A DNA stretch of 50,367 nt, taken from contig NZ_LIQR01000196.1 in NCBI RefSeq assembly GCF_001418575.1, forward strand, positions 1-50,367, given 5' to 3'. The DNA is from Peterkaempfera griseoplana (lineage in GTDB: Bacteria > Actinomycetota > Actinomycetes > Streptomycetales > Streptomycetaceae). Under the pieces are notes generated by a model, which did no database searches, was not told the DNA's origin, and saw only the letters and a list, made by a program, of their open reading frames with translations. The position numbers and the translations under genes are program-made. Below, piece after piece: positions 6,489 to 21,189 of this stretch. How positions within the stretch are numbered: position 1 is the first letter of the stretch; every line of letters starts with the position of its first letter.

Positions 6489-7013
6489 ATGCTCAGCCGC
6501 TCTTCCTTGTGCTGCGCGACCGTGGTGTTGCTGATCGCACCAGTGCTGGCCGCCTGTTCGAGCGCGCCGGGTGGTGTCTCCGCTGCGTCTGGCCCCACGG
6601 TGAGTGTCACTGCGTCTCCCACGGCAGCCGGCACGGTTCCGGCACAGCCCAGTGCCTCGGCGTCGGTCGTCTACCCGTCGACGGACGCGGCGCCGGGTGC
6701 AGGTCCGATGGAGGTGCGGGACGCTTTCGCGGTCCTCCAAGCGACCTACAACGACAACTGCGGCACGCCTGGGAACTGCGAGTACTTCCTTGACCGGCTG
6801 CTGCAGAACCTGGACGATCTTGACAACGCCATGAAGGCGAGCCCCAAGGGCAAGAGCCACTTCGCCAAACCGCTCGCCTGGATCGCACAGATGCGGACCA
6901 CCCTCGGCGGAGACATCTCCTTCCCGAGCCTGAAGAAGCAGCAGAGCCTCCTGACAGGCACCCGGGACAGGATCAACACATGGATGCAGTCGCATCCGGA
7001 GGACTACCGGTGA
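6489..7013 (+). CDS. Small lipoprotein of unknown function
   Basis: 174 residues. The ATG at 6489 is chosen over the upstream ATG at 6432 because it starts a signal peptide (MLSRSSLCCATVVLLIAPVL) with lipobox LAAC at about residues 20-23 and has GGGGA upstream. A Ser/Ala/Thr/Pro linker of ~45 residues follows, then a predicted helical domain of ~100 residues (from MEVRDAFAVLQATYNDNC) with two cysteines spaced CGTPGNC, probably a disulfide. No named domain recognised. The gene would be anchored on the outer face of the membrane. Confidence 0.72.
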   Translation: MLSRSSLCCATVVLLIAPVLAACSSAPGGVSAASGPTVSVTASPTAAGTVPAQPSASASVVYPSTDAAPGAGPMEVRDAFAVLQATYNDNCGTPGNCEYFLDRLLQNLDDLDNAMKASPKGKSHFAKPLAWIAQMRTTLGGDISFPSLKKQQSLLTGTRDRINTWMQSHPEDYR

Positions 7014-7137
7014 CGGGCCGGGGCCGGGCTGTCGAGGTCGAGCTGTCTCCGTAGCAGGCAGTGATCACCACCACACCAAGAGAGCTTCCCGCCTGAGCCG
7101 AGATCATCCCCAGGCCTTTCACGGCACTCAGCGGCAA

Positions 7138-7318
7138 CCGACAGGTCGTTAAGTGACTCTTCGGGGGGCTCGAGCATCCGTGCGACGAACTCGACCATGC
7201 CGCAGTCGTGGTGTGTGAACCGTTTCTCCCTGCTGCGGACCACCACTGTCGGATCGCCTGAGCCTGCCGGGATGACGACAGTGGGCCCCGCAACCCAGGT
7301 GTCGGTGGCTGCACGTAC
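7138..7318 (-). pseudogene. Remnant of an SMI1/KNR4-type (SUKH) protein
   Basis: On the minus strand this stretch encodes VVVRSREKRFTHHDCGMVEF followed by VARMLEPPEE and NDLSV, which matches the C-terminal part of streptomycete SMI1/KNR4-like proteins (conserved D-C-G-M-x-x-F and L-S-D-L-S type ending). No start codon, ribosome-binding site or N-terminal domain is present, and the sequence after NDLSV degenerates. It abuts, in opposite orientation, the intact SMI1/KNR4 gene at 7328. Assignment rests on motif memory, not on a search. Confidence 0.45.
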
Positions 7319-7327
7319 GGTCTGGGC

Positions 7328-8008
7328 ATGACTGATCAGTGGTGGGCGGGGGTACGTCAGCGGGTCGAGGCGGTGGGTGCAGGGCCTGGGGGTGGCGAGG
7401 TTTTCGGGGCAAAGGGGCACAAGTGGGCCTTGGAGGCGCCGCTCACCCGGGGCGAGCTTGCTGAACTCGAGGCTCAGACAGGCGTGCGACTGCCGGAGGA
7501 GTACCGGGCCTTCCTTCTCCACGTCGGCGCGGGCGGCGCCGGCCCGGCGTACGGCCTGTTCCCGGTTCGGCGCGTGCAGGGCCGTTGGCGTTGGGAAGGC
7601 GACGGCGCGGGCCTGGCCGACCTGTCGAGGCTTGCCGAGCCGTTTCCCGACCAGGGCCCGGACCCGAAGCTGGTCGACGACCTCCGTGCCCAACGTCCCG
7701 AGGAAGAGGATTTCGACGATGTCGAGGACTTCGACGACGCCATGGAGGCGTGGGACGAACGGTGGGATGCCGTCATGTTCGCTCCCGAACGCACTGCCGG
7801 TGCGATAGTGATCTGTCATCTGGGCTGTGCCCGACGGGAGTGGCTGATCATCAGTGGCAGCCACCGCGGCACGATCTGGTCCGACGACCGGGCGGACGAC
7901 GTCGACCTCGTGCCGCTCCTCAATGACGACGGGAAGCCGGTGACCTTCGCCCGCTGGTACAGCGACTGGCTGCAGCAGGCCGAGCGAACTGCCCTGTCGA
8001 CGCCGTAG
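7328..8008 (+). CDS. SMI1/KNR4 (SUKH) family protein
   Basis: 226 residues, cytosolic. The SUKH core is visible: residues ~36-60 hold the conserved LTRGELAELEAQTGVRLPEE followed by YRAFLLHVGAGG, then a GLFPV turn. Residues ~120-145 are strongly acidic (EEEDFDDVEDFDDAMEAWDE). The C-terminal half (VICHLGCARREWLIISG, then GTIWSDDRADD) follows the family. SUKH proteins in bacteria are often immunity proteins of contact-dependent or polymorphic toxin systems; no toxin gene adjoins this one. The ATG at 7328 has no clear Shine-Dalgarno sequence; a TACGGT six bases upstream would allow leaderless transcription. Confidence 0.85.
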   Translation: MTDQWWAGVRQRVEAVGAGPGGGEVFGAKGHKWALEAPLTRGELAELEAQTGVRLPEEYRAFLLHVGAGGAGPAYGLFPVRRVQGRWRWEGDGAGLADLSRLAEPFPDQGPDPKLVDDLRAQRPEEEDFDDVEDFDDAMEAWDERWDAVMFAPERTAGAIVICHLGCARREWLIISGSHRGTIWSDDRADDVDLVPLLNDDGKPVTFARWYSDWLQQAERTALSTP

Positions 8009-9035: not shown

Positions 9036-9464
9036 TCATCCTTCGCGGACCTGCTCCTGTTGACTCATCGTGGTGACCAGAGTGGAGGAGATGTGAGCCA
9101 GGGCGGGGTCTGCAGCCATGAAGAACGTTTCGATTCCGGCCAGTTCGTGGTTCATACGGGCCATCGGCATTTCGTAGTCCAGGTCGGAAGCGCCGCGGAC
9201 TCCGCGGATGACGACGTCGATTCCGCCTCGGCGGCAGTAGTCGATCAGCAGGCCACCGGTGTGGGAGTCGACCGTGACGTTGCTCAGGTCAGCCGCTGCC
9301 GCGCGGAGCCGGTCCAGCCGCTCCGTGACGGTGAAACGGCCGGTCTTCTTCGCGTTGGACATCACACAGACGACGACCTCGTCGAAGAGGAGGGCAGCGC
9401 GCCGGAGTACGTCCTGGTGCCCTTGGGTGACCGGGTCGAAGGATCCTGGGAAGAGGGCTCGCAT
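9036..9464 (-). CDS. Phosphopantetheine adenylyltransferase-like protein (CoaD paralogue)
   Basis: 142 residues from the ATG at 9464; the in-frame extension to 9593 is rejected because MRALFPGSFDPVTQGHQDVL is the canonical CoaD N-terminus. Nucleotidyltransferase motifs are complete: the T/HxGH-type loop T13-x-G-H16 after GSFDP, K in MSNAKKTGRFTV, IRGVRGASDLDYEMPMARMN with the substrate-binding Arg, and HISSTLV corresponding to the ISSS(L/V) motif. It is 15-20 residues shorter than usual CoaD (about 160), lacking the end after the ISS helix. CoaD normally sits beside rsmD/recG; this isolated copy is likely a second paralogue. Reaction if active: 4'-phosphopantetheine + ATP to dephospho-CoA. 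Confidence 0.85.
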   Translation of the reverse strand: MRALFPGSFDPVTQGHQDVLRRAALLFDEVVVCVMSNAKKTGRFTVTERLDRLRAAAADLSNVTVDSHTGGLLIDYCRRGGIDVVIRGVRGASDLDYEMPMARMNHELAGIETFFMAADPALAHISSTLVTTMSQQEQVREG

Positions 9465-10017
9465 GATCGGAGAGGGTAACAAGCGGCCGCCTCGTTCCAT
9501 ACGGCCGGCGACGGGTTCACGCCGACCACCGGCGCAACGCTGAACCCGCCTTCCGCCGTCGTCCGGCTGAGCACGCCGGCCAAGGATTCCCAACGGTCGT
9601 GATCAAGATCTTCCGGGCGAGTATCAGCCTCGCGCAGTCACGAGCGATCGTGGCCGCGGACTGAGCCGAAAAGACTTGCCACGCCGGGGGCCAGCCCCTG
9701 GCGCCCGCCGTACCGAATCACTCCGCCCGATCGGATCCCACTGAGCCGACTCGTACGCTGCGACGCCTGCGGCGGGCAACCGCCTCAGCGGCGGTCTGCG
9801 GTCCGCCGGAGCACATGCCAGGCCGCCCGTCGGCCGTCAGCCGAAAGTCGTAGTGCCGCCCCACAGGTCCGACTTCTGCCCGAAGCCGGGGCGTGCACGG
9901 TCTTCATAGCCTGCTGGTCATGAGCTCCCTCTCGCGGACTCGGTCCCCCGAACGGCCGGCGGTCCTCGTTGCCCACTGGGCACAGGCCCGGTCGTGCGAC
10001 CCCAGGAAAGGCGCCGC
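9465..10017. other. Intergenic region, about 550 bases
   Basis: Divergent promoter region between the coaD-like gene and alr. Short frames here are Arg/Pro-rich and unsupported. I see no RNA gene or clear operator. Confidence 0.45.
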
Positions 10018-11196
10018 ATGTACTGCGCAGCACCGATCGCTCCCGGCGTCCGCGTCGCCGAGCCGCCGCGGCGGACCGGCCGCGGGGACGGCGCGGAGCT
10101 GACGCTCGACCCGTCGGCGATCGCCGCCAACACACGATTCCTCGCCGCGCGGGCCACCCGCCTGATGGCGGTGGTCAAGGCCGACGGTTTCGGCCACGGC
10201 GCCGCCGAGGCCGCCGCGGCCGCCCTCGGCGCGGGCGCGACCTCGCTCGGCGTCACGTCGGTGGAGGAGGCCCTGGTCCTGCGGGCCGCCGGTTTCCGGG
10301 TGCCGATCCTGAGCTGGCTCAACCCGGTGGACGGCGCGTTCGAGGAGGCGCTGCGCGCCCATGTCTCCCTGGCCGTTCCCGGGTGCGCCCACCTGACGTC
10401 CGTCGTACGCGCCGCATCCCGGACGCGTCGCACGGCGCGGATCCATCTACAGCTGGACACCGGGATGGGCCGCGACGGCGCCGAGCCCGAGGCGTGGCCG
10501 GAGCTGTGCCGGCGGGCACGCCAGGCGGAAGCGGACGGTCTGGCCGAGGTCGTGGGGGTGATGAGCCACCTCGGCTGCGCGGAGACCCCCGGTGACCCGT
10601 GCACCGACCGCGCACTCGACCTGTTCAGGACGGCGGTGTCCACTGCGGCGGAGGCCGGGCTGCGTCCCCGGCGGCGGCATCTGGCGGCGACGTCGGCGAC
10701 CCTCACCGACTCGCGGACCCGGTTCGACCTCGCCCGCGTCGGCGCCGGTCTCTTCGGCATCGACCCGACCGGGACGACCCGGCTGCGCCCCGCCCTCACG
10801 CTGACCGCACCCGTGGTGGCGGTACGCGCGGTGCCGGCCGGCGCCGGAGCCGGATACGGACACAGCTGGAGCGCGGAGCGGCGCACCCATCTGGCGCTGC
10901 TGCCGGTGGGGTACGCGGACGGTCTTCCCCGCAGCGCGTCCGCCCGGGCGGAGGTTCTCCTCGGTGGCCGCCGGTGCCGCATCGCGGGCCGGATCTCCAT
11001 GGACCAGGTCATCGTCGACACGGGTGACCGGCCGGCGGTGCCCGGTGAGACCGCCACCGTCTTCGGGCCGGGTGATCGGGGCGAGCCCACGGTCAGGGAG
11101 TGGGCCCGGTGGTCCGGAACCCTGGAGCACGAGATCATGACCGGTCTGGGCGCACGCCTGCGCCGCAGCGTGCGCCGCCAGGCGGTGGCCGCATGA
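10018..11196 (+). CDS. alr: Alanine racemase
   Basis: 392-residue PLP-dependent racemase converting L-Ala to D-Ala for peptidoglycan. The ATG at 10018 has an AGGAAAGG ribosome-binding site at 10004-10011; a GTG at 9994 is the longer alternative. The PLP lysine is K54 in AVVKADGFGHG (the usual form is KA-AYGHG, here G-F). The catalytic Tyr is in GAGYGHSW, followed by LPVGYADGLPR and the C-terminal GRISMDQ motif. There is no N-terminal membrane domain, so it is not a VanT-type serine racemase. The stop overlaps the start of the ligase gene (ATGA), so the two are translationally coupled. Probably a second racemase dedicated to this operon. Confidence 0.93.
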   Translation: MYCAAPIAPGVRVAEPPRRTGRGDGAELTLDPSAIAANTRFLAARATRLMAVVKADGFGHGAAEAAAAALGAGATSLGVTSVEEALVLRAAGFRVPILSWLNPVDGAFEEALRAHVSLAVPGCAHLTSVVRAASRTRRTARIHLQLDTGMGRDGAEPEAWPELCRRARQAEADGLAEVVGVMSHLGCAETPGDPCTDRALDLFRTAVSTAAEAGLRPRRRHLAATSATLTDSRTRFDLARVGAGLFGIDPTGTTRLRPALTLTAPVVAVRAVPAGAGAGYGHSWSAERRTHLALLPVGYADGLPRSASARAEVLLGGRRCRIAGRISMDQVIVDTGDRPAVPGETATVFGPGDRGEPTVREWARWSGTLEHEIMTGLGARLRRSVRRQAVAA

Positions 11197-12239
11197 CCGG
11201 CACCGTACCGTCGCTGGGCGGCCGCATCCGCGTCGCGGTGATCGGCGGCGGCCGCAACTGCGAGCACGAGGTCTCCCTGGCGTCCGCCGCGTCCGTGCGT
11301 TTCGCGCTCGACCCCGCCGTCCACGACGTCCTCGCCCTCATCATAGGCCGCGACGGACGGTGGCAGGACGGCGACGGGCAGCCGCTCGCGGGCACAGCCG
11401 CGGAGAGCCTGTCCGTCGCCCTGATGCTGCTGGCCGGTTGCGACGTGGCCTTCCCCGCGGTCCACGGCCCGTGCGGCGAGGACGGCACGCTGGCCGCGCT
11501 GCTGGAGCTGGCGGACGTGCCGTATGTCGGCGCGGGGGTGCGCGGCGGCGCGCTGGCTATGGACAAGTGGGCGACCAAGCTGGTGGCCGAGGCGGTCGGC
11601 GTCGCCGTGGCGCCGGGCGTCCTGGTGACGGCGGAGGACGCGGACCGGGTGACCTTCGACGGCCCGGTCGTCGTGAAGCCCGTCGCCGCCGGGTCCAGCC
11701 ACGGCGTCTCCCTCGTCCAGCAGCCCTCGGACCTGGCCCCGGCCCTCGCCGAGGCCCTCCGGCTCGACGACCGGGTGCTGGTCGAGGAACTGGTCGTCGG
11801 GCGTGAGGTGGATCTCGCCGTGCTGCGGCGGGCGGACGGCACCCTGACGGTGGGGCCGCCGCTGGAGATCGTCCTGGACGACGGACGCCTGTTCGACACG
11901 GAGCAGAAGTACGACGGCGGCGCCCGGTTCCTGATACCCGCACCGCTGTCCGCCGACGAGCACGACCGACTGGTCGACGCCTCCCTGGCGGTGTTCACCG
12001 CACTGGGCTGCCGCGGAGTCGCCCGGTGCGACTTCTTCCTCACCGCCGACGGCCCCGTCCTCAACGAGGTCAACACCATGCCGGGCATGACCGCGCAGTC
12101 GCAGGTCCCGAAGATGTTCGCGCACCAGGGGCTGAGCTATCCCGCGCTGCTCCACGAACTCGTGCGCGGCGCCCTGCGCCCGGACTCCCGTACCCGTGTC
12201 CGCCCCCATGGCGCGGTCGTCGAGCCGAGCCTCGCATGA
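11193..12239 (+). CDS. ddl: D-alanine--D-alanine ligase family protein
   Basis: 348-residue ATP-grasp ligase. Active-site residues known from E. coli DdlB are present: E24 (in NCEHEVSLAS, DdlB E15), the serine of GSSHG (DdlB S150), the Lys-Tyr of DTEQKY (DdlB K215/Y216), Arg in VARCDFF and the metal-binding NEVNTMPGMTAQS. The Tyr in the omega loop argues for D-Ala-D-Ala (or D-Ser) rather than D-lactate ligation. A histidine replaces the usual hydrophobic residue in GSS-x-G, which is unusual. It overlaps alr by four bases upstream. Cytosolic; would supply D-Ala-D-Ala for peptidoglycan or a self-resistant variant. Symbol by family, not by orthology. Confidence 0.92.
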   Translation: MTGTVPSLGGRIRVAVIGGGRNCEHEVSLASAASVRFALDPAVHDVLALIIGRDGRWQDGDGQPLAGTAAESLSVALMLLAGCDVAFPAVHGPCGEDGTLAALLELADVPYVGAGVRGGALAMDKWATKLVAEAVGVAVAPGVLVTAEDADRVTFDGPVVVKPVAAGSSHGVSLVQQPSDLAPALAEALRLDDRVLVEELVVGREVDLAVLRRADGTLTVGPPLEIVLDDGRLFDTEQKYDGGARFLIPAPLSADEHDRLVDASLAVFTALGCRGVARCDFFLTADGPVLNEVNTMPGMTAQSQVPKMFAHQGLSYPALLHELVRGALRPDSRTRVRPHGAVVEPSLA

Positions 12240-12307
12240 CCGCGCCGCCGAACACCGCCCCTCCCGGCCCCGGCCGGGCCCCCGTCCACCACCACCGGAG
12301 GCTTCCC

Positions 12308-12511
12308 GTGTCCTTCTCCCTGCACCGGCTGCTGCGCTCGGCCCGGGTGTGTGCGTTGACCGCCGTCGAGGTGGCCGTCCTCGGCACGGGTACGGACCTC
12401 ATGTCCGCGGAGCAGGACTCCGCGCGGGAGGCACCGGCGGCGACCGGGCGCCACCGGGCGGCGGTTGCCGGGGTGAGAGGTGCCTCAGGGGCATCCGGAG
12501 CGCTTCGGTGA
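12308..12511 (+). CDS. 67-residue small protein between ligase and kinase
   Basis: GTG start at 12308 with a near-perfect GGAGG (12297-12301) six bases upstream; the stop overlaps the kinase start as GTGA (12508-12511). Begins MSFSLHRLLRSARVCALTAV, a basic N-terminus followed by a modest hydrophobic stretch to about residue 25, then a hydrophilic Ala/Arg/Gly/Ser-rich tail. No family recognised; one cysteine only. A longer reading from an ATG at 12236 that overlaps the ligase stop is possible. It could be a small membrane-associated signal or sensor partner, or a coupling ORF. Confidence 0.5.
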   Translation: MSFSLHRLLRSARVCALTAVEVAVLGTGTDLMSAEQDSAREAPAATGRHRAAVAGVRGASGASGALR

Positions 12512-13737
12512 CACTGGAGGGGACCACCGACGGCGGGCCGCCCGCCCGGCGAGCCGGAGCAGGGAACGAGAGCAGGGACGACGAAGACGTGAACAACAGC
12601 ACGAACCGCTTGCTGGAGCGGCTGGTGCACAGTGTGATGTCGCTGGCGGGCCTGGGGGTCCTGCTGAGCCTGGGGATCGTGGACATGGTCCTGGGCCTGG
12701 CCAGGCCGTCCGTCATCACGTTGGCGGCTCTCGTCGCCGTGATCACATGGCGGCTGTCCGGCCGGGCGCTCGGCAGCAGCGCACTGGTCCTGGGCCTGAT
12801 CATGCTGCTGACGACGGTGAGTCCTGACTCCACTCCCGTGGCGATCCTGCCGTTCGGGGTCACCGCCACCGCCGTCACCCTGCTGGTCATCGGTCTGTCC
12901 GCCTGGCGGGCGGAGCCCACCCGCGCCACGGTCGCGATCCCTCTGCTGCTGGGGAGCCTGGTCCTGGGACCCGTGCAGCTGTCCGCCACCAGGATCGCCC
13001 CGGTCGTCTCCCTCGCCCTGGCGCTGGCCGGTGTCATCGCCGGCGCCACGGGTCTGTGGGCACGCATGCTCCAGACCGGCCGCCGGCGCCAGGCGGTCGC
13101 CGAGCAGTTGGCGCAGCGCGCAAGCATCGCGTCCGATCTCCACGACTACGTCGCCCACCACGTCACGGGCATCGTGGTGCTCGCGCAGGCCGCGCAGAGC
13201 GTCGCAGCCAAACAGCCGCAGGCGGTGCTCCCCGCACTGGAGCGCATCGAGGCGGCCGGGGACGAGGCGATGACCGCCATCCGGCGCATGGTCGCCCTGC
13301 TGCACGAACCCGGCTCACAGGCCCGGCTGACACCGATGGGCACCATCGCCGACATCGCCTCCCTCGCCGACCACTTCACCTCCGGCGACGACGTCAAGGT
13401 GCGGCTGAACATCTCCGGGGACTTCGACGACGTACCCATCGACGTCCAGTCGGCCGCGCACCGGGTGGTGATGGAGGCCCTGACCAACGTCCGCAGGCAC
13501 GCCGAGGGCGTGCAGGCCCTGGAGATCCTGGTGCACCGCGACACCCGGCCCGACTCGGTGACGGTCGAGGTCTCCAACGACGGCCGCGCCCGCGTCGGCC
13601 ACGTCGCGGCGGGCGGCTACGGCCTGGCCGGTCTGCGCGACCGGGCCCTGGCGCTCGGCGGCTCCTTCACCGCAGGTCCGAGGACCCCGGACGGCTGGAC
13701 CGTCCAGGCCCGATTCCCGACGGAGGGCGCACGATGA
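12508..13737 (+). CDS. NarL-type sensor histidine kinase
   Basis: 409 residues from the GTG at 12508, which overlaps the preceding stop and has GGAG at 12497-12500; a GTG at 12589 (382 residues) is a serious alternative. The N-terminal half carries about six hydrophobic segments (e.g. SVMSLAGLGVLLSLGIVDMV, VITLAALVAVITW, VVSLALALAGVIAGATGLWA) with very short loops, so the signal is probably sensed in the membrane. HisKA_3 follows: phospho-acceptor His in SDLHDYVAHHVTGI (H185 of the short form). The ATPase has N-box VVMEALTNVRRHAEG and G-box GGYGLAGLRDRALALGG. It is coupled to its regulator by ATGA. Linkage to alr and ddl suggests it monitors cell-wall state. Confidence 0.92.
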   Translation: MTLEGTTDGGPPARRAGAGNESRDDEDVNNSTNRLLERLVHSVMSLAGLGVLLSLGIVDMVLGLARPSVITLAALVAVITWRLSGRALGSSALVLGLIMLLTTVSPDSTPVAILPFGVTATAVTLLVIGLSAWRAEPTRATVAIPLLLGSLVLGPVQLSATRIAPVVSLALALAGVIAGATGLWARMLQTGRRRQAVAEQLAQRASIASDLHDYVAHHVTGIVVLAQAAQSVAAKQPQAVLPALERIEAAGDEAMTAIRRMVALLHEPGSQARLTPMGTIADIASLADHFTSGDDVKVRLNISGDFDDVPIDVQSAAHRVVMEALTNVRRHAEGVQALEILVHRDTRPDSVTVEVSNDGRARVGHVAAGGYGLAGLRDRALALGGSFTAGPRTPDGWTVQARFPTEGAR

Positions 13738-14375
13738 CCATCCGGGTCCTGCTCGCGGACGACCAGGCCATGGTCCGCACCGGTTTCTCCCTGATCCTCG
13801 GTGCCGAGGACGACATCGAGGTGGTCGGCGAGGCGAAGGACGGCGTCCAGGCCCTGGAGATGGCCCGTCTCCTGAACCCGGACGTCGTCCTCATGGACAT
13901 CCGCATGCCGCGGATGGACGGGCTCCAGGCGCTGCGCGAACTGAACCGCAGCGGCGCCGCCTCCAAGGTCGTGGTCGTCACCACCTTCGACGACGACGCC
14001 TACGTCTACGAGGCGCTCAACTGCGGTGCCTGCGGCTTCCTCCTCAAGGACTCGGGCCCGGTGCTGCTCATCGAGGCGGTGCGCGCGGCCCATTCCGGTG
14101 AGGCCCTGGTGAGTCCGGCGATCACGGTCCGGCTGCTGCGGGGCATCCAGCCACCGCGGACCGCGCCCCCCGCCACGTCCGACCTCTCCTCACGCGAGAC
14201 CGAGGTGGTGCGGCTGGTCGCCGACGGCATGACGAACGCGGAGATCGCTGCCGCGCTCTTCGTCTCCCTGGGCACGGTCAAGACCCATCTGGGGAACATC
14301 CAGACCAAGCTTGCCGCACGCAACCGCGTGGAGATCGCGCTGTGGGCGTGGCGCTCGGGCCTGGTCGAGGGGTAG
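13734..14375 (+). CDS. NarL/FixJ family response regulator
   Basis: 213 residues. Receiver domain 1-120 with acidic pair D9/D10, phospho-acceptor D55 (VVLMDIRMP), Thr83/84 (VVTTFDD) and K105 (GFLLKDSG). The C-terminal LuxR-type HTH spans about residues 145-205 (LSSRETEVVRLVADGMTNAE, then VSLGTVKTHLGNIQTKL). The ATG at 13734 overlaps the kinase stop by four bases, so expression is coupled. It is the last gene of the alr-ddl-ORF-kinase-regulator unit; a strong hairpin follows. Confidence 0.95.
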   Translation: MTIRVLLADDQAMVRTGFSLILGAEDDIEVVGEAKDGVQALEMARLLNPDVVLMDIRMPRMDGLQALRELNRSGAASKVVVVTTFDDDAYVYEALNCGACGFLLKDSGPVLLIEAVRAAHSGEALVSPAITVRLLRGIQPPRTAPPATSDLSSRETEVVRLVADGMTNAEIAAALFVSLGTVKTHLGNIQTKLAARNRVEIALWAWRSGLVEG

Positions 14376-18055: not shown

Positions 18056-18490
18056 GTGACGGGTGCGGAGATCGCGGTCGGGTACATGTGCGCCTGGCTT
18101 GTGGCCAAGGCCAGGCGCGTTGCGGGGCGGGCGGATGCCGAGGTCGATCGGAGCCTCGACGCAGGGATGAGCCGGCTTCATCAGCTGGTCAGCAGCAAGC
18201 TCGGACAGGACCCGGCACTGGAGCGAGCCGAGGAGGAGGCCGGGGAAGGCCAGGCGGAACCCTCGGAGCGCACCCGGCGCCGGCTGACGGACTCACTGGA
18301 GGACGCGGCCGAGCGTGACCCGGCGTTCTCCGAGGCTCTGGATGCGTTGGTCAGGGAGTTGCAGGACGTCGCTGCCCAGGTGCCGGGAGCGGGCGGCGGC
18401 GGTGGGGTGGGGAGCCGGAACACCTTCTGGGGGCCGGCCGCTCTACAGATAGGCGACCACAACCGGCAGGACAACCGGTTCGGCCGCTGA
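18056..18490 (+). CDS. Putative NLR-partner effector with C-terminal RHIM-like motif
   Basis: 144 residues (GTG start at 18056). Residues 1-110 are almost entirely helical: a short hydrophobic first helix (MTGAEIAVGYMCAWLVAKAR), then amphipathic acidic helices with RTRRRLTDSLEDAAERDPAF, a composition typical of small proteins encoded just ahead of streptomycete NB-ARC genes. A Gly-rich linker (AGGGGGVGS) leads to the last 23 residues, where GPAALQIGDHNRQDNRF (126-142) resembles the RHIM core (I/V-Q-x-G) and the Asn/Gln-rich amyloid signalling motifs of bacterial NLR partners. The next gene begins two bases after the stop and carries the same motif at its N-terminus. Inference: an effector, possibly membrane-acting, switched on by amyloid templating from the receptor. 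Confidence 0.7.
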   Translation: MTGAEIAVGYMCAWLVAKARRVAGRADAEVDRSLDAGMSRLHQLVSSKLGQDPALERAEEEAGEGQAEPSERTRRRLTDSLEDAAERDPAFSEALDALVRELQDVAAQVPGAGGGGGVGSRNTFWGPAALQIGDHNRQDNRFGR

Positions 18491-18492
18491 GC

Positions 18493-21189
18493 ATGGCAGG
18501 CGACGGCTACACCGGGCCCTTCGCCGGTCAGTACGGCGACCACAACGAGCAGAACAACCACTTTCACGCCGCGCCCCGCACCCCCGCTCCCTGGCCGCAC
18601 CAGGTCGGGGTGATACCGCCCAGGGCGCAGTGGCTCCAGGACCGTGCCGAGACCCGCCTGCTGACCCGGGTACTGTCCGAGGGCGGAACAGTGGGCGAGG
18701 CGTTAGGCGGAGCCAGGGGCGGAACCACGAGCACCGAACCTGCCCGGCAGGCACTGGCGAGCGGGGTGCTGGCGGGTATGGGCGGGGTCGGCAAGACCCA
18801 GCTGGCCGCTCACTACGCGCGCACCGCCTGGCGATCGGGTGCCCTCGACGTCCTGGTGTGGATCACCGCCAGCAGCCCGACGGCGATCGTCAACGGATAC
18901 GCGCAGGCCGCCGCCGAAGTCCTCGCCGCCGACACCACCGACCCGCAACGGGCCGCAGCGAACTTCCTGGCCTGGCTGGAACCCAAAGGCGACCGCCCGC
19001 CCTGCCGCTGGCTGGTCGTGCTCGACGACGTCGCCGACCCCAACGACCTGCGAGGCTGGTGGCCACCCGCCAGCCCGACCGGGAGCACGCTCGTCACCAC
19101 CCGGCGCAAGGACGCCGCCCTGACGGCCTCCCGCAGCGTCGTCGAGGTCGGCATGTTCAGCGAGGCGGAGTCCGTCGCCTACCTCACCCAGACACTGGCC
19201 GCTCGCGACCGCCGTGAACCCGACGACGAGCTGGCCGCCCTCGCCGCCCGCCTGGGGCACCTGCCACTCGCGCTGTCCCAGGCTGCCGCATACGTCATCG
19301 ACGCCGACATCACCTGCGCCGCGTACCGGGCCCTGCTGGCCGACCGTGCCCACACCCTGGCCGACGTCGCTCCGGACGCCCTCCCCGACGACCAGCCCCA
19401 CACGGTCGCCGCCGCCTGGTCCCTGTCCGTCGACCGCGCCGACGCCCTGCGCCCCCGCGGGCTGGCCCGCCCGTTGCTCGAGCTTGCTGCGTTCCTCGAC
19501 CCGAACGGCATCCCCGACAGCGTCCTGACCAGTGAGCCCGCGCTCGCCCACCTGAGCCGCCGTCAACGGCACCTCACCGGCGTGCAGAACGTCACCGCCG
19601 ACCGGGTTCTCCTCGCCCTCCGGGCACTGCACCGACTCAGCCTGATCGCCCACACGCCCGCGGTCGCCCATCAGGCTGTCCGCGTCCACCAGCTCCTGCA
19701 GCGTGCCGTCCGCGAGAGCCTCACTCCGGCGCGACACACCCGGCAGGCACACATCGCCGCTGACGCTCTGGCCGCGGCCTGGCCGGAGGTCGAGAACCAC
19801 GCCGTCTTCGCCCAGGCTCTGCGGGCCAACGCCACCGCCCTCATCGCCTGTGCGGGAGATGAACTCCACCAGGCCGGCATCCACCCGGTGCTGTTCCGCG
19901 CGGGCCGCAGCCTGGGCGAGGTCGGACAGCTCGACGCCGCTCGCGCCCACTATCAGCACCTCGCCGACACCGCGCGTCGGCACCTCGGCGCCGAACACGC
20001 CGACACCCTGATAGCGCGCTACCAGACCGCGGCATGGCAGGCCCGGGCGGGGAACACGGCCGACGCCCTGACGGCCCTTGCGAAGGTGCTGCACGACCAG
20101 AGTCGAGTGCTGGGACCTGACCATCCCGACACGCTCAGGACGCGGAGCAGCGTCATCGTCGTCCAGGCCCAGGAGGACGGCGACAGGACCCAGGAGCTGG
20201 CGAGCCTGATCAAGCTGCTGGAGCAGCAGATGCAGGCTCTCGGGCTCGACCATCGGGACTGTCTGGCCACCCGGCGGAGGGTCGCGTCCGTGATGGGGGA
20301 GGCCGGGTTCAAGGCCGAGGCCGTGGGCAGCCTGGCCGAAGTACTGCAGGATCAGGTGCGGGTGCTGGGTCCCGACGACCCGGACACCGTCGCCACGCAG
20401 GATGCGCTGGCGTTCTGGCAGGCAGAGGTGCGGACACAGGACGCGGGCAGTGCCGCGAAGGCCATGAATCAGGTGCTGCAGGAGCAGATGCAGGTCCTCG
20501 GCCCCGACCATCGTGACACCCTCGCCACTCGCCGTAAGATCGCGACCCTGTCAGGGCAGGTGGGCGACATAGCCGGAGCTGTGCAGATCCTGACAGACCT
20601 GCTCGACGACCAGGGGCGGATCCTGGGGGCCGACGATCTCGAAACCCTCAGCACCAGGAAGCAGCTGGCCTTCTGGCAAGGGCGGCTGTCCGGTGCGGAC
20701 AGCGCCGTCGCGGTCCTCACCACGCTGATCGAGGACCAGGCCCGGGTCCTGGGCCGGGACCATGCCGACAGCCTTGACACACGTAAGGAGCTCGCCTTCT
20801 GGCAGGGCCGGGTGCACGGCGGGAGCAGGGCCGTGGAGACCCTGGCCGATCTGGTGGGCGACATGGTCCGGGTACTCGGCCCGGACCACGCCCAGACGCT
20901 CGACGCGATGGACGACCTCGTCTTCTGGCGGGACCAGGTCGACAGAATCCGCAGCACCGCGGCCGGCTACTCCTCGCTGCTCGACCAAGCGCTGACGCTC
21001 CTGGGTCCCGAGCACCCTCGCACCGTCGATGCGGCCGACAAGCTCGCCTTCCACCGCGACCGGGCCGGGGACGCAACCGGCCCCGTGCGGGCGCTGACCA
21101 GGCTGCTGAGCAGCATGAGCAGCACACTGGGACTTGACCACCCGCACACGTCGGCGATCGAGGACCATCTGGCCTTCTGGCGAGCCTGA
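18493..21189 (+). CDS. NLR/STAND protein: N-terminal RHIM-like motif, NB-ARC, TPR array
   Basis: 898 residues. Residues 8-24 (GPFAGQYGDHNEQNNHF) mirror the C-terminal motif of the upstream protein. NB-ARC ATPase: Walker A GMGGVGKT (95-102), Walker B RWLVVLDDV (172-180), sensor TLVTTRR, and the GxP motif GHLPLALSQAAAYV (255-268). A winged-helix-like segment carries VRVHQLLQRAVRES in the MHD position. From about residue 485 ten TPR-like repeats follow, each 42-44 residues with a consensus VLGPDHxDTLxTRxxLAFW, ending at the last codon. Architecture is that of a pathogen/self sensor: ligand binds the repeats, ATP-driven oligomerisation exposes the N-terminal motif, which seeds the partner. Same operon as 18056. 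The ligand is unknown. Confidence 0.92.
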   Translation: MAGDGYTGPFAGQYGDHNEQNNHFHAAPRTPAPWPHQVGVIPPRAQWLQDRAETRLLTRVLSEGGTVGEALGGARGGTTSTEPARQALASGVLAGMGGVGKTQLAAHYARTAWRSGALDVLVWITASSPTAIVNGYAQAAAEVLAADTTDPQRAAANFLAWLEPKGDRPPCRWLVVLDDVADPNDLRGWWPPASPTGSTLVTTRRKDAALTASRSVVEVGMFSEAESVAYLTQTLAARDRREPDDELAALAARLGHLPLALSQAAAYVIDADITCAAYRALLADRAHTLADVAPDALPDDQPHTVAAAWSLSVDRADALRPRGLARPLLELAAFLDPNGIPDSVLTSEPALAHLSRRQRHLTGVQNVTADRVLLALRALHRLSLIAHTPAVAHQAVRVHQLLQRAVRESLTPARHTRQAHIAADALAAAWPEVENHAVFAQALRANATALIACAGDELHQAGIHPVLFRAGRSLGEVGQLDAARAHYQHLADTARRHLGAEHADTLIARYQTAAWQARAGNTADALTALAKVLHDQSRVLGPDHPDTLRTRSSVIVVQAQEDGDRTQELASLIKLLEQQMQALGLDHRDCLATRRRVASVMGEAGFKAEAVGSLAEVLQDQVRVLGPDDPDTVATQDALAFWQAEVRTQDAGSAAKAMNQVLQEQMQVLGPDHRDTLATRRKIATLSGQVGDIAGAVQILTDLLDDQGRILGADDLETLSTRKQLAFWQGRLSGADSAVAVLTTLIEDQARVLGRDHADSLDTRKELAFWQGRVHGGSRAVETLADLVGDMVRVLGPDHAQTLDAMDDLVFWRDQVDRIRSTAAGYSSLLDQALTLLGPEHPRTVDAADKLAFHRDRAGDATGPVRALTRLLSSMSSTLGLDHPHTSAIEDHLAFWRA
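19984..21189 (+). repeat. Ten in-frame tandem repeats of about 126 bases (TPR-like)
   Basis: Codon for the Leu of the L-G-x-x-H/D anchor falls at 19984, 20110, 20239, 20365, 20497, 20623, 20749, 20875, 21001 and 21127, giving spacings of 126, 129, 126, 132 and then five times 126 bases. Coding repeat, not CRISPR. Confidence 0.85.

What the first reader, a model, noticed from the sequence alone, without database searches (positions are those of the whole stretch)
10018..14375. alr-ddl-small ORF-kinase-regulator unit, coupled by overlapping start/stop codons
ATGA at 11193, GTGA at 12508 and ATGA at 13734 join D-Ala supply genes to a two-component system. No vanH, vanX or vanJ is nearby, so it is not a classical van cluster. 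It could be a cell-wall stress or D-cycloserine/antibiotic tolerance module.
Basis: partly seen in the sequence, partly recalled or inferred. Interest (0 to 1): 0.6.

Follow-up and report, generated by a model that had tools for sequence, protein, structure and literature searches.

The report
Van-like D-amino-acid cassette, probably D-serine-type
A Streptomyces-family bacterium carries a compact, sensor-controlled gene set that probably makes an altered cell-wall building block (D-Ala-D-Ser instead of D-Ala-D-Ala), and relatives of it, many with vancomycin-resistance-type genes attached, are widespread in soil actinobacteria but largely uncharacterised.

Summary
In detail: alr (10018-11196), ddl (11193-12239), a small ORF, a HisKA_3 kinase and a NarL-type regulator (to 14375) run head to tail with 4-nt overlaps. 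The genome has separate housekeeping alr and ddl genes. The pair is not a duplicated D-Ala supply. Its ligase belongs to an 83-sequence actinobacterial clade, far from housekeeping Ddl, in which every member has Gln where Ddl has Met/Ala/Val and VanA/VanG have Arg. Its racemase has His at the Tyr354 position; VanT serine racemase has Asn there, 29 of 29 housekeeping racemases Tyr. In 80 related loci alr lies next to ddl (77), a VanX-type dipeptidase upstream (55), an acyltransferase-3 gene (30) and a NarL-type two-component system (46) downstream. Best reading: a D-Ala-D-Ser-type peptidoglycan-remodelling cassette. The window clade lost vanX, took another two-component system (relatives sit beside ABC-transporter or VanZ genes), and gained a conserved small protein and promoter block; in one relative that block also precedes an ABC-transporter gene. 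The substrate is inferred, not shown; D-cycloserine tolerance is the main rival.

The parts
9840..9928 (+). Conserved promoter/operator block upstream of alr (GCCGAAAGTCGTAG, then GGTCCGACTTCTGCCCGAAGC, then TTCATAGC and CATGAGCTCC); proposed regulator site
   Evidence: Conserved in G111 and G087 upstream of alr in otherwise diverged DNA, and once more in G111 upstream of a second small ORF and ABC-transporter ATPase gene. The core 19-mer matches exactly only once in the own genome. Binding by the regulator is inferred.
10018..11196 (+). alr-type racemase of the cassette class; His371 at the Geobacillus Tyr354 position
   Evidence: Pfam Ala_racemase_N/C; class-specific residues
11193..12239 (+). 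D-Ala-D-X ligase of the cassette clade; Gln304 at the DdlB Leu282 position, Tyr240 at the Tyr216 position
   Evidence: Pfam Dala_Dala_lig_N/C; tree; residues
12236..12511 (+). Small ORF (ATG 12236, or GTG 12308 after GGAGG); conserved core LHRLLRSARVCALTAVEVAVLGTGTD
   Evidence: Core conserved in G111 and G087 at the same place; related small ORFs elsewhere in the family; no Pfam match
12508..13737 (+). HisKA_3 sensor kinase with hydrophobic N-terminal half (start GTG 12508 or 12589)
   Evidence: Pfam HisKA_3; 57 and 64% identical to the kinases of G111 and G087, 26% to that of L111
13734..14375 (+). NarL/LuxR-type response regulator
   Evidence: Pfam Response_reg and GerE; ATGA overlap with the kinase

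Best explanation
A two-component-system-controlled peptidoglycan-precursor remodelling cassette of D-Ala-D-Ser type. Proposed working: (1) the kinase/regulator pair senses envelope or antibiotic stress and activates the promoter block upstream of alr (inferred); (2) the racemase makes a D-amino acid other than alanine, most likely D-Ser (inferred from His371 and other pocket changes); (3) the ligase joins D-Ala to it (inferred from Gln304), giving stem peptides with weaker affinity for D-Ala-D-Ala-binding antibiotics; (4) in most relatives a VanX-type dipeptidase removes the normal D-Ala-D-Ala. In the window clade that gene is gone from the locus, so the altered dipeptide would compete with the normal one and the effect should be weaker. 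Shown here: gene content, overlaps, clade membership, fixed residue changes, conserved promoter block, absence of vanX at the locus, a different two-component system. Not shown: substrate, product, inducer, phenotype.
For: 83 of 83 cassette ligases, and 6 of 6 of a sister lineage, have Gln at the DdlB Leu282 position; housekeeping and reference Ddl have A/M/V, VanG and VanA have R. Cassette racemases have His (75) or Asn (1) at Tyr354; VanTG has Asn; 29 of 29 housekeeping ones have Tyr. Gene order in 80 loci: VanX-type M15 upstream of alr in 55, AT3 gene after ddl in 30, NarL-type system in 46. The AT3 gene is notable because VanT is an AT3 domain fused to a serine racemase (PMC12423673). A sister variant has a VanY-N match above cut-off and VanR-O/VanS-O-like genes (442 bits each, below strict cut-offs). 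The ligase clade is well separated from housekeeping Ddl. The genome has its own housekeeping alr and ddl. Conserved promoter block upstream of alr.
Against: No NCBIfam Van model reaches its cut-off: D_ala_D_ser 219 against 520, vanT-G-Cterm 192 against 460. Gln and His are not the residues of known D-Ser enzymes (Arg in VanG, Asn in VanT). No VanX-type gene in the cassette; the one M15D gene in the genome (C797) is of another family, and G087 has no match. A change at the Tyr354 position can also reduce D-cycloserine inhibition (PMC5700341). No substrate data.
Confidence: 0.55

Rival explanations
1. D-cycloserine tolerance: the pair are drug-insensitive replacements of the two D-cycloserine targets, still making D-Ala and D-Ala-D-Ala, switched on by stress.
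For: Both targets of the drug are encoded together, apart from the housekeeping copies. M. tuberculosis Alr Y364D, by alignment the same position as His371, raises the D-cycloserine IC50 50-fold (PMC5700341).
Against: A VanX-type D-Ala-D-Ala dipeptidase in 55 of 80 related loci would destroy the product. VanY/VanRS-like neighbours in the sister variant. A fixed Gln at the second-substrate site is not needed for this.
Confidence: 0.2
2. The cassette makes D-Ala linked to another D-amino acid (for example D-Thr or D-Asn), for wall tailoring in development or against other agents, not D-Ser and not glycopeptide resistance.
For: The pocket residues (Gln, His) differ from those of VanG and VanT; the two-component system is not VanRS.
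Against: Van-like gene context in relatives; one cassette racemase has the VanT residue Asn (L093).
Confidence: 0.17
3. An ordinary duplicated alr/ddl pair: D-Ala supply under local control, with no change of specificity.
For: [quoted passage not shown]
Against: Long separate branch; pocket substitutions fixed in 83 of 83 ligases and in all cassette racemases; linked VanX-type dipeptidase in relatives.
Confidence: 0.08

Closest known systems
D-Ala-D-Ser glycopeptide-resistance operons VanC/E/G/L/N (ligase, VanXY, VanT, VanRS)
   Same: Racemase and ligase encoded together under a two-component system; Tyr kept at the omega loop as in VanG; Tyr354 replaced as in VanT. In relatives also an M15 peptidase and an AT3 gene, as separate genes (VanL, as I recall, also splits VanT into two genes).
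   Different: Ligase Gln in place of Arg, racemase His in place of Asn; soluble racemase; NarL-type, not OmpR-type, system; no peptidase and no AT3 in the window; different ligase clade.
Actinobacterial vanY-racemase-ddl-vanRS groups (PMC8698665)
   Same: Racemase and Ddl beside a two-component system; the authors suggested D-Ala-D-Ser. Our sister variant (for example L099) has this layout.
   Different: Described there as rare and tied to VanRS; the window and most relatives have NarL-type systems, and the relatives a VanX-type peptidase.
Micromonosporales pdx operon (PMC8698665)
   Same: Ddl-like ligase, VanX-like dipeptidase and regulatory pair, no vanH
   Different: Has a PALP serine-threonine dehydratase in place of a racemase
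Classical vanHAX-RS (D-Ala-D-Lac)
   Same: Inducible replacement of the D-Ala-D-Ala ligase; VanX-type gene in relatives
   Different: No vanH; ligase keeps the omega-loop Tyr that VanA lacks; Gln not Arg
LiaRS/VraSR-type envelope-stress systems
   Same: HisKA_3 kinase with NarL/LuxR-type regulator
   Different: Only family-level similarity to the LiaS model (27 bits, cut-off 450)

Membership tests
VanC/E/G/L/N D-Ala-D-Ser operon | Ligase reaches the curated D-Ala-D-Ser ligase models | tested here: not met
   NF000207 219 bits against 520; NF000091 (VanG) 220 against 495
VanC/E/G/L/N D-Ala-D-Ser operon | Serine racemase VanT (model match; membrane AT3 domain) | tested here: not met
   vanT-G-Cterm 192 against 460; soluble racemase in the window, AT3 a separate gene in 30 relatives
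VanC/E/G/L/N D-Ala-D-Ser operon | VanXY or VanX plus VanY peptidase in the operon | tested here: not met
   None in the window; VanX-type in 55 of 80 relatives, VanY-N type in 6
VanC/E/G/L/N D-Ala-D-Ser operon | VanRS of OmpR/HisKA type | tested here: not met
   Window pair is NarL/HisKA_3; VanR-O/VanS-O-like only in the sister variant
VanC/E/G/L/N D-Ala-D-Ser operon | D-Ala-D-Ser product and reduced glycopeptide susceptibility | not testable with these tools
   Needs enzyme assays and MICs
Classical vanHAX operon | vanH present; ligase with VanA-type omega loop and Arg | tested here: not met
   No vanH among the window genes near the unit; Tyr240 and Gln304
Actinobacterial alr-ddl(Gln) cassette family (grouped here) | Ligase inside the 83-row clade with Gln; racemase with His/Asn at Tyr354; alr directly upstream of ddl | tested here: met
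Actinobacterial alr-ddl(Gln) cassette family (grouped here) | M15 VanX-type gene and the family's usual NarL-type two-component system | tested here: not met
   The window clade lacks the M15 gene, and its kinase/regulator belong to another HisKA_3/NarL family
Housekeeping alr and ddl | Tyr at racemase 354, Met/Ala/Val/Leu at ligase 282, conserved chromosomal neighbours | tested here: not met
   His371 and Gln304; the housekeeping pair is on C53 and C390

The most novel reading that the evidence does not exclude
An actinobacterial lineage evolved altered-dipeptide (probably D-Ala-D-Ser) precursor synthesis independently of the enterococcal Van systems, with its own specificity residues (ligase Gln, racemase His). 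It is spread over many soil genera in modular forms (VanX-type + AT3 + NarL system; VanY + VanRS-like; peptidase-free with ABC/VanZ-type regulation, as in this window), and so is an unrecognised reservoir of glycopeptide-type target modification.
Probability: 0.45. Interest if true: 0.75.

Novelty: new variant of a known kind. Interest (0 to 1): 0.58.

Why it matters
[quoted passage not shown] The coupled changes, Gln in the ligase and His in the racemase, give a simple sequence signature and a directly testable question about how D-Ser specificity arises. The window clade shows how such a cassette can lose its dipeptidase and be rewired to a different sensor.

Tried and rejected
Two calls were lost to frame errors, one to a search-term format and one to a malformed report. 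The VanG ligase structure paper (PMC3488035) is not held. That the VanX-type gene had merely moved to contig C797 was rejected: that gene belongs to a separate Streptomycetaceae family, 64-71% identical also in genomes in which no close cassette ligase was found. Promoter/terminator consensus scan: nothing found. The promoter block is not a notable RNA fold (z 0.30). A further site of the promoter motif in the own genome: none exact, the next best has 2 mismatches. Spread of the whole unit on known plasmids: no plasmid record covers it. D-Ala-D-Lac was rejected on the kept omega-loop Tyr and the absence of vanH. A first idea that Tyr354 is the Tyr of the SYRVPR motif was corrected by counting on the solved Geobacillus chain: it is the Tyr of TINYEV. 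Structure prediction was not used, because the active-site motifs align without ambiguity.

Full report
What is there. The unit reads alr 10018-11196, ddl 11193-12239, a small ORF ending at 12511, a HisKA_3 kinase to 13737 and a NarL/LuxR-type regulator to 14375, all on the + strand with 4-nt overlaps at 11193, 12508 and 13734. The genome (8.24 Mb, 802 contigs; a Streptomycetaceae member judging by its relatives) has a second ddl on contig C390, beside a gpsA-like gene, and another full-length Alr on contig C53, beside a TsaE-like gene (those neighbour names are from sequence inspection).

Which family. The single genome-contig scan found 305 ligase relatives; the best 80 were kept with flanks. 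The loci were chosen by ligase similarity alone, so their flanks are informative. Genes were called with a codon-usage script and clustered. Alr is immediately upstream in 77 of 80, with a 4-nt overlap in 53; a VanX-type M15 peptidase precedes alr in 55; an acyltransferase-3 gene follows ddl in 30; a HisKA_3 kinase and NarL regulator follow in 46 (Pfam). A sister variant has a VanY-N match above cut-off upstream and VanR-O/VanS-O-like genes downstream (442 bits each, below the strict cut-offs). The same ligase clade therefore sits in recognisably van-like surroundings.

Substrate pocket, ligase. At the DdlB Leu282 position all 83 cassette ligases have Gln, as do all 6 of a sister lineage that includes fused Alr-Ddl proteins. 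Housekeeping and reference Ddl have Met, Ala or Val; VanG and VanA have Arg. The omega-loop Tyr216 is kept in all 83, as in VanG and unlike VanA. That the 282 position governs the second substrate (Arg322 in VanC2) is from my own knowledge of mutagenesis work. In a quick maximum-likelihood tree the 83 form one clade (SH-aLRT 100, branch 1.58), apart from housekeeping Ddl, VanA and VanG; the window groups with G111 and G087 (99), and with G049 (L111) next (88). The careful search did not finish, and the tool warns that the long VanG, VanA and Thermus rows are placed unsurely.

Substrate pocket, racemase. Tyr354 of Geobacillus Alr (located on the solved chain) is Tyr in 29 of 29 housekeeping Streptomycetaceae Alr. 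It is His in 75 cassette racemases, including the window's (His371), and Asn in one, as in VanTG. One Tyr row in the cassette file is an unrelated Tsukamurella gene. Other near-fixed differences include Y43F, W164M, S165G, N203A, S204T, S264G and A311S, in Geobacillus numbering assigned by motif. Racemase and ligase have therefore changed together, which fits one pathway using a D-amino acid other than alanine. VanG, VanT and Geobacillus Alr were recalled only as search queries; the residues are read from the solved chains that came back.

What is special in the window clade. The nearest outgroup, L111, still has vanX-alr-ddl with the family's usual two-component system. In the window, G111 and G087 vanX is gone, the kinase and regulator belong to a different HisKA_3/NarL family (the window kinase is 57-64% identical to theirs, 26% to that of L111), and a conserved small ORF lies between ddl and kinase. 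Relatives of this kinase elsewhere sit beside ABC-transporter genes (L165, L166) or opposite a VanZ-family gene (L167, L170). A block at 9840-9928 upstream of alr is conserved in all three genomes and occurs once more in G111, upstream of a related small ORF followed by an ABC-transporter ATPase gene. I infer that it is the operator of this two-component system. The outer neighbours differ between the three genomes, so the functional unit probably runs from about 9840 to 14375.

VanX question. The genome has one M15D gene, on C797, about 50% identical to cassette VanX proteins. It belongs to a separate Streptomycetaceae family, and G087 has no match at all. If the product is D-Ala-D-Ser, the window clade would make it in competition with normal D-Ala-D-Ala, predicting a weak or tolerance-like phenotype. 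This is inference.

Literature. PMC8698665 recorded vanY-racemase-ddl-vanRS groups in a few actinobacteria and suggested D-Ala-D-Ser. PMC12423673 points out that VanT is an AT3 domain fused to a serine racemase, which makes the separate AT3 gene in 30 loci notable. PMC5700341 shows that M. tuberculosis Alr Y364D, by alignment the same position as His371, raises the D-cycloserine IC50 50-fold; this supports the main rival. I found no paper on the VanX-type/alr/ddl/NarL arrangement, but most subscription papers are not held, so absence is not proof.

Verdict. A real, conserved, regulated unit of the van-like kind, in a variant form; a D-Ala-D-Ser product is the best-supported mechanism but is not shown.

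Noticed in passing
L010 5828-8029, L011 5843-8029, L021 (G132): Fused Alr-Ddl bifunctional proteins, two of them on Streptomyces plasmids; their ligase half also has Gln at the Leu282 position and forms the sister lineage of the cassette clade.
   Followed up: partly
L051, L070, L089 (Nocardioides): The cassette lies between a gpsA-like gene and the housekeeping ddl, at the usual ddl locus.
   Followed up: no
L175, L176, L177; L179 7793-7972: Relatives of the small ORF: one before an ABC-transporter ATPase gene in G111, others opposite a gene that looks like a HelD/HelR-type helicase (named by inspection only).
   Followed up: partly
L167 4603-7211, L170 5102-7887: Kinase/regulator relatives of the window pair stand opposite a VanZ-family gene (Pfam VanZ).
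   Followed up: partly
window 9036-9464, - strand: A cytidylyltransferase-like ORF resembling coaD (phosphopantetheine adenylyltransferase), 142 aa, divergent from alr.
   Followed up: no
window 18056-21189: A large NB-ARC/TPR protein with a 144-aa ORF directly in front of it, a STAND-like pair.
   Followed up: no
L093 (Nocardioides sp. zg-1308), alr 6763-7959: The only cassette racemase with Asn, the VanT residue, at the Tyr354 position; a good candidate for a serine-racemase assay.
   Followed up: no
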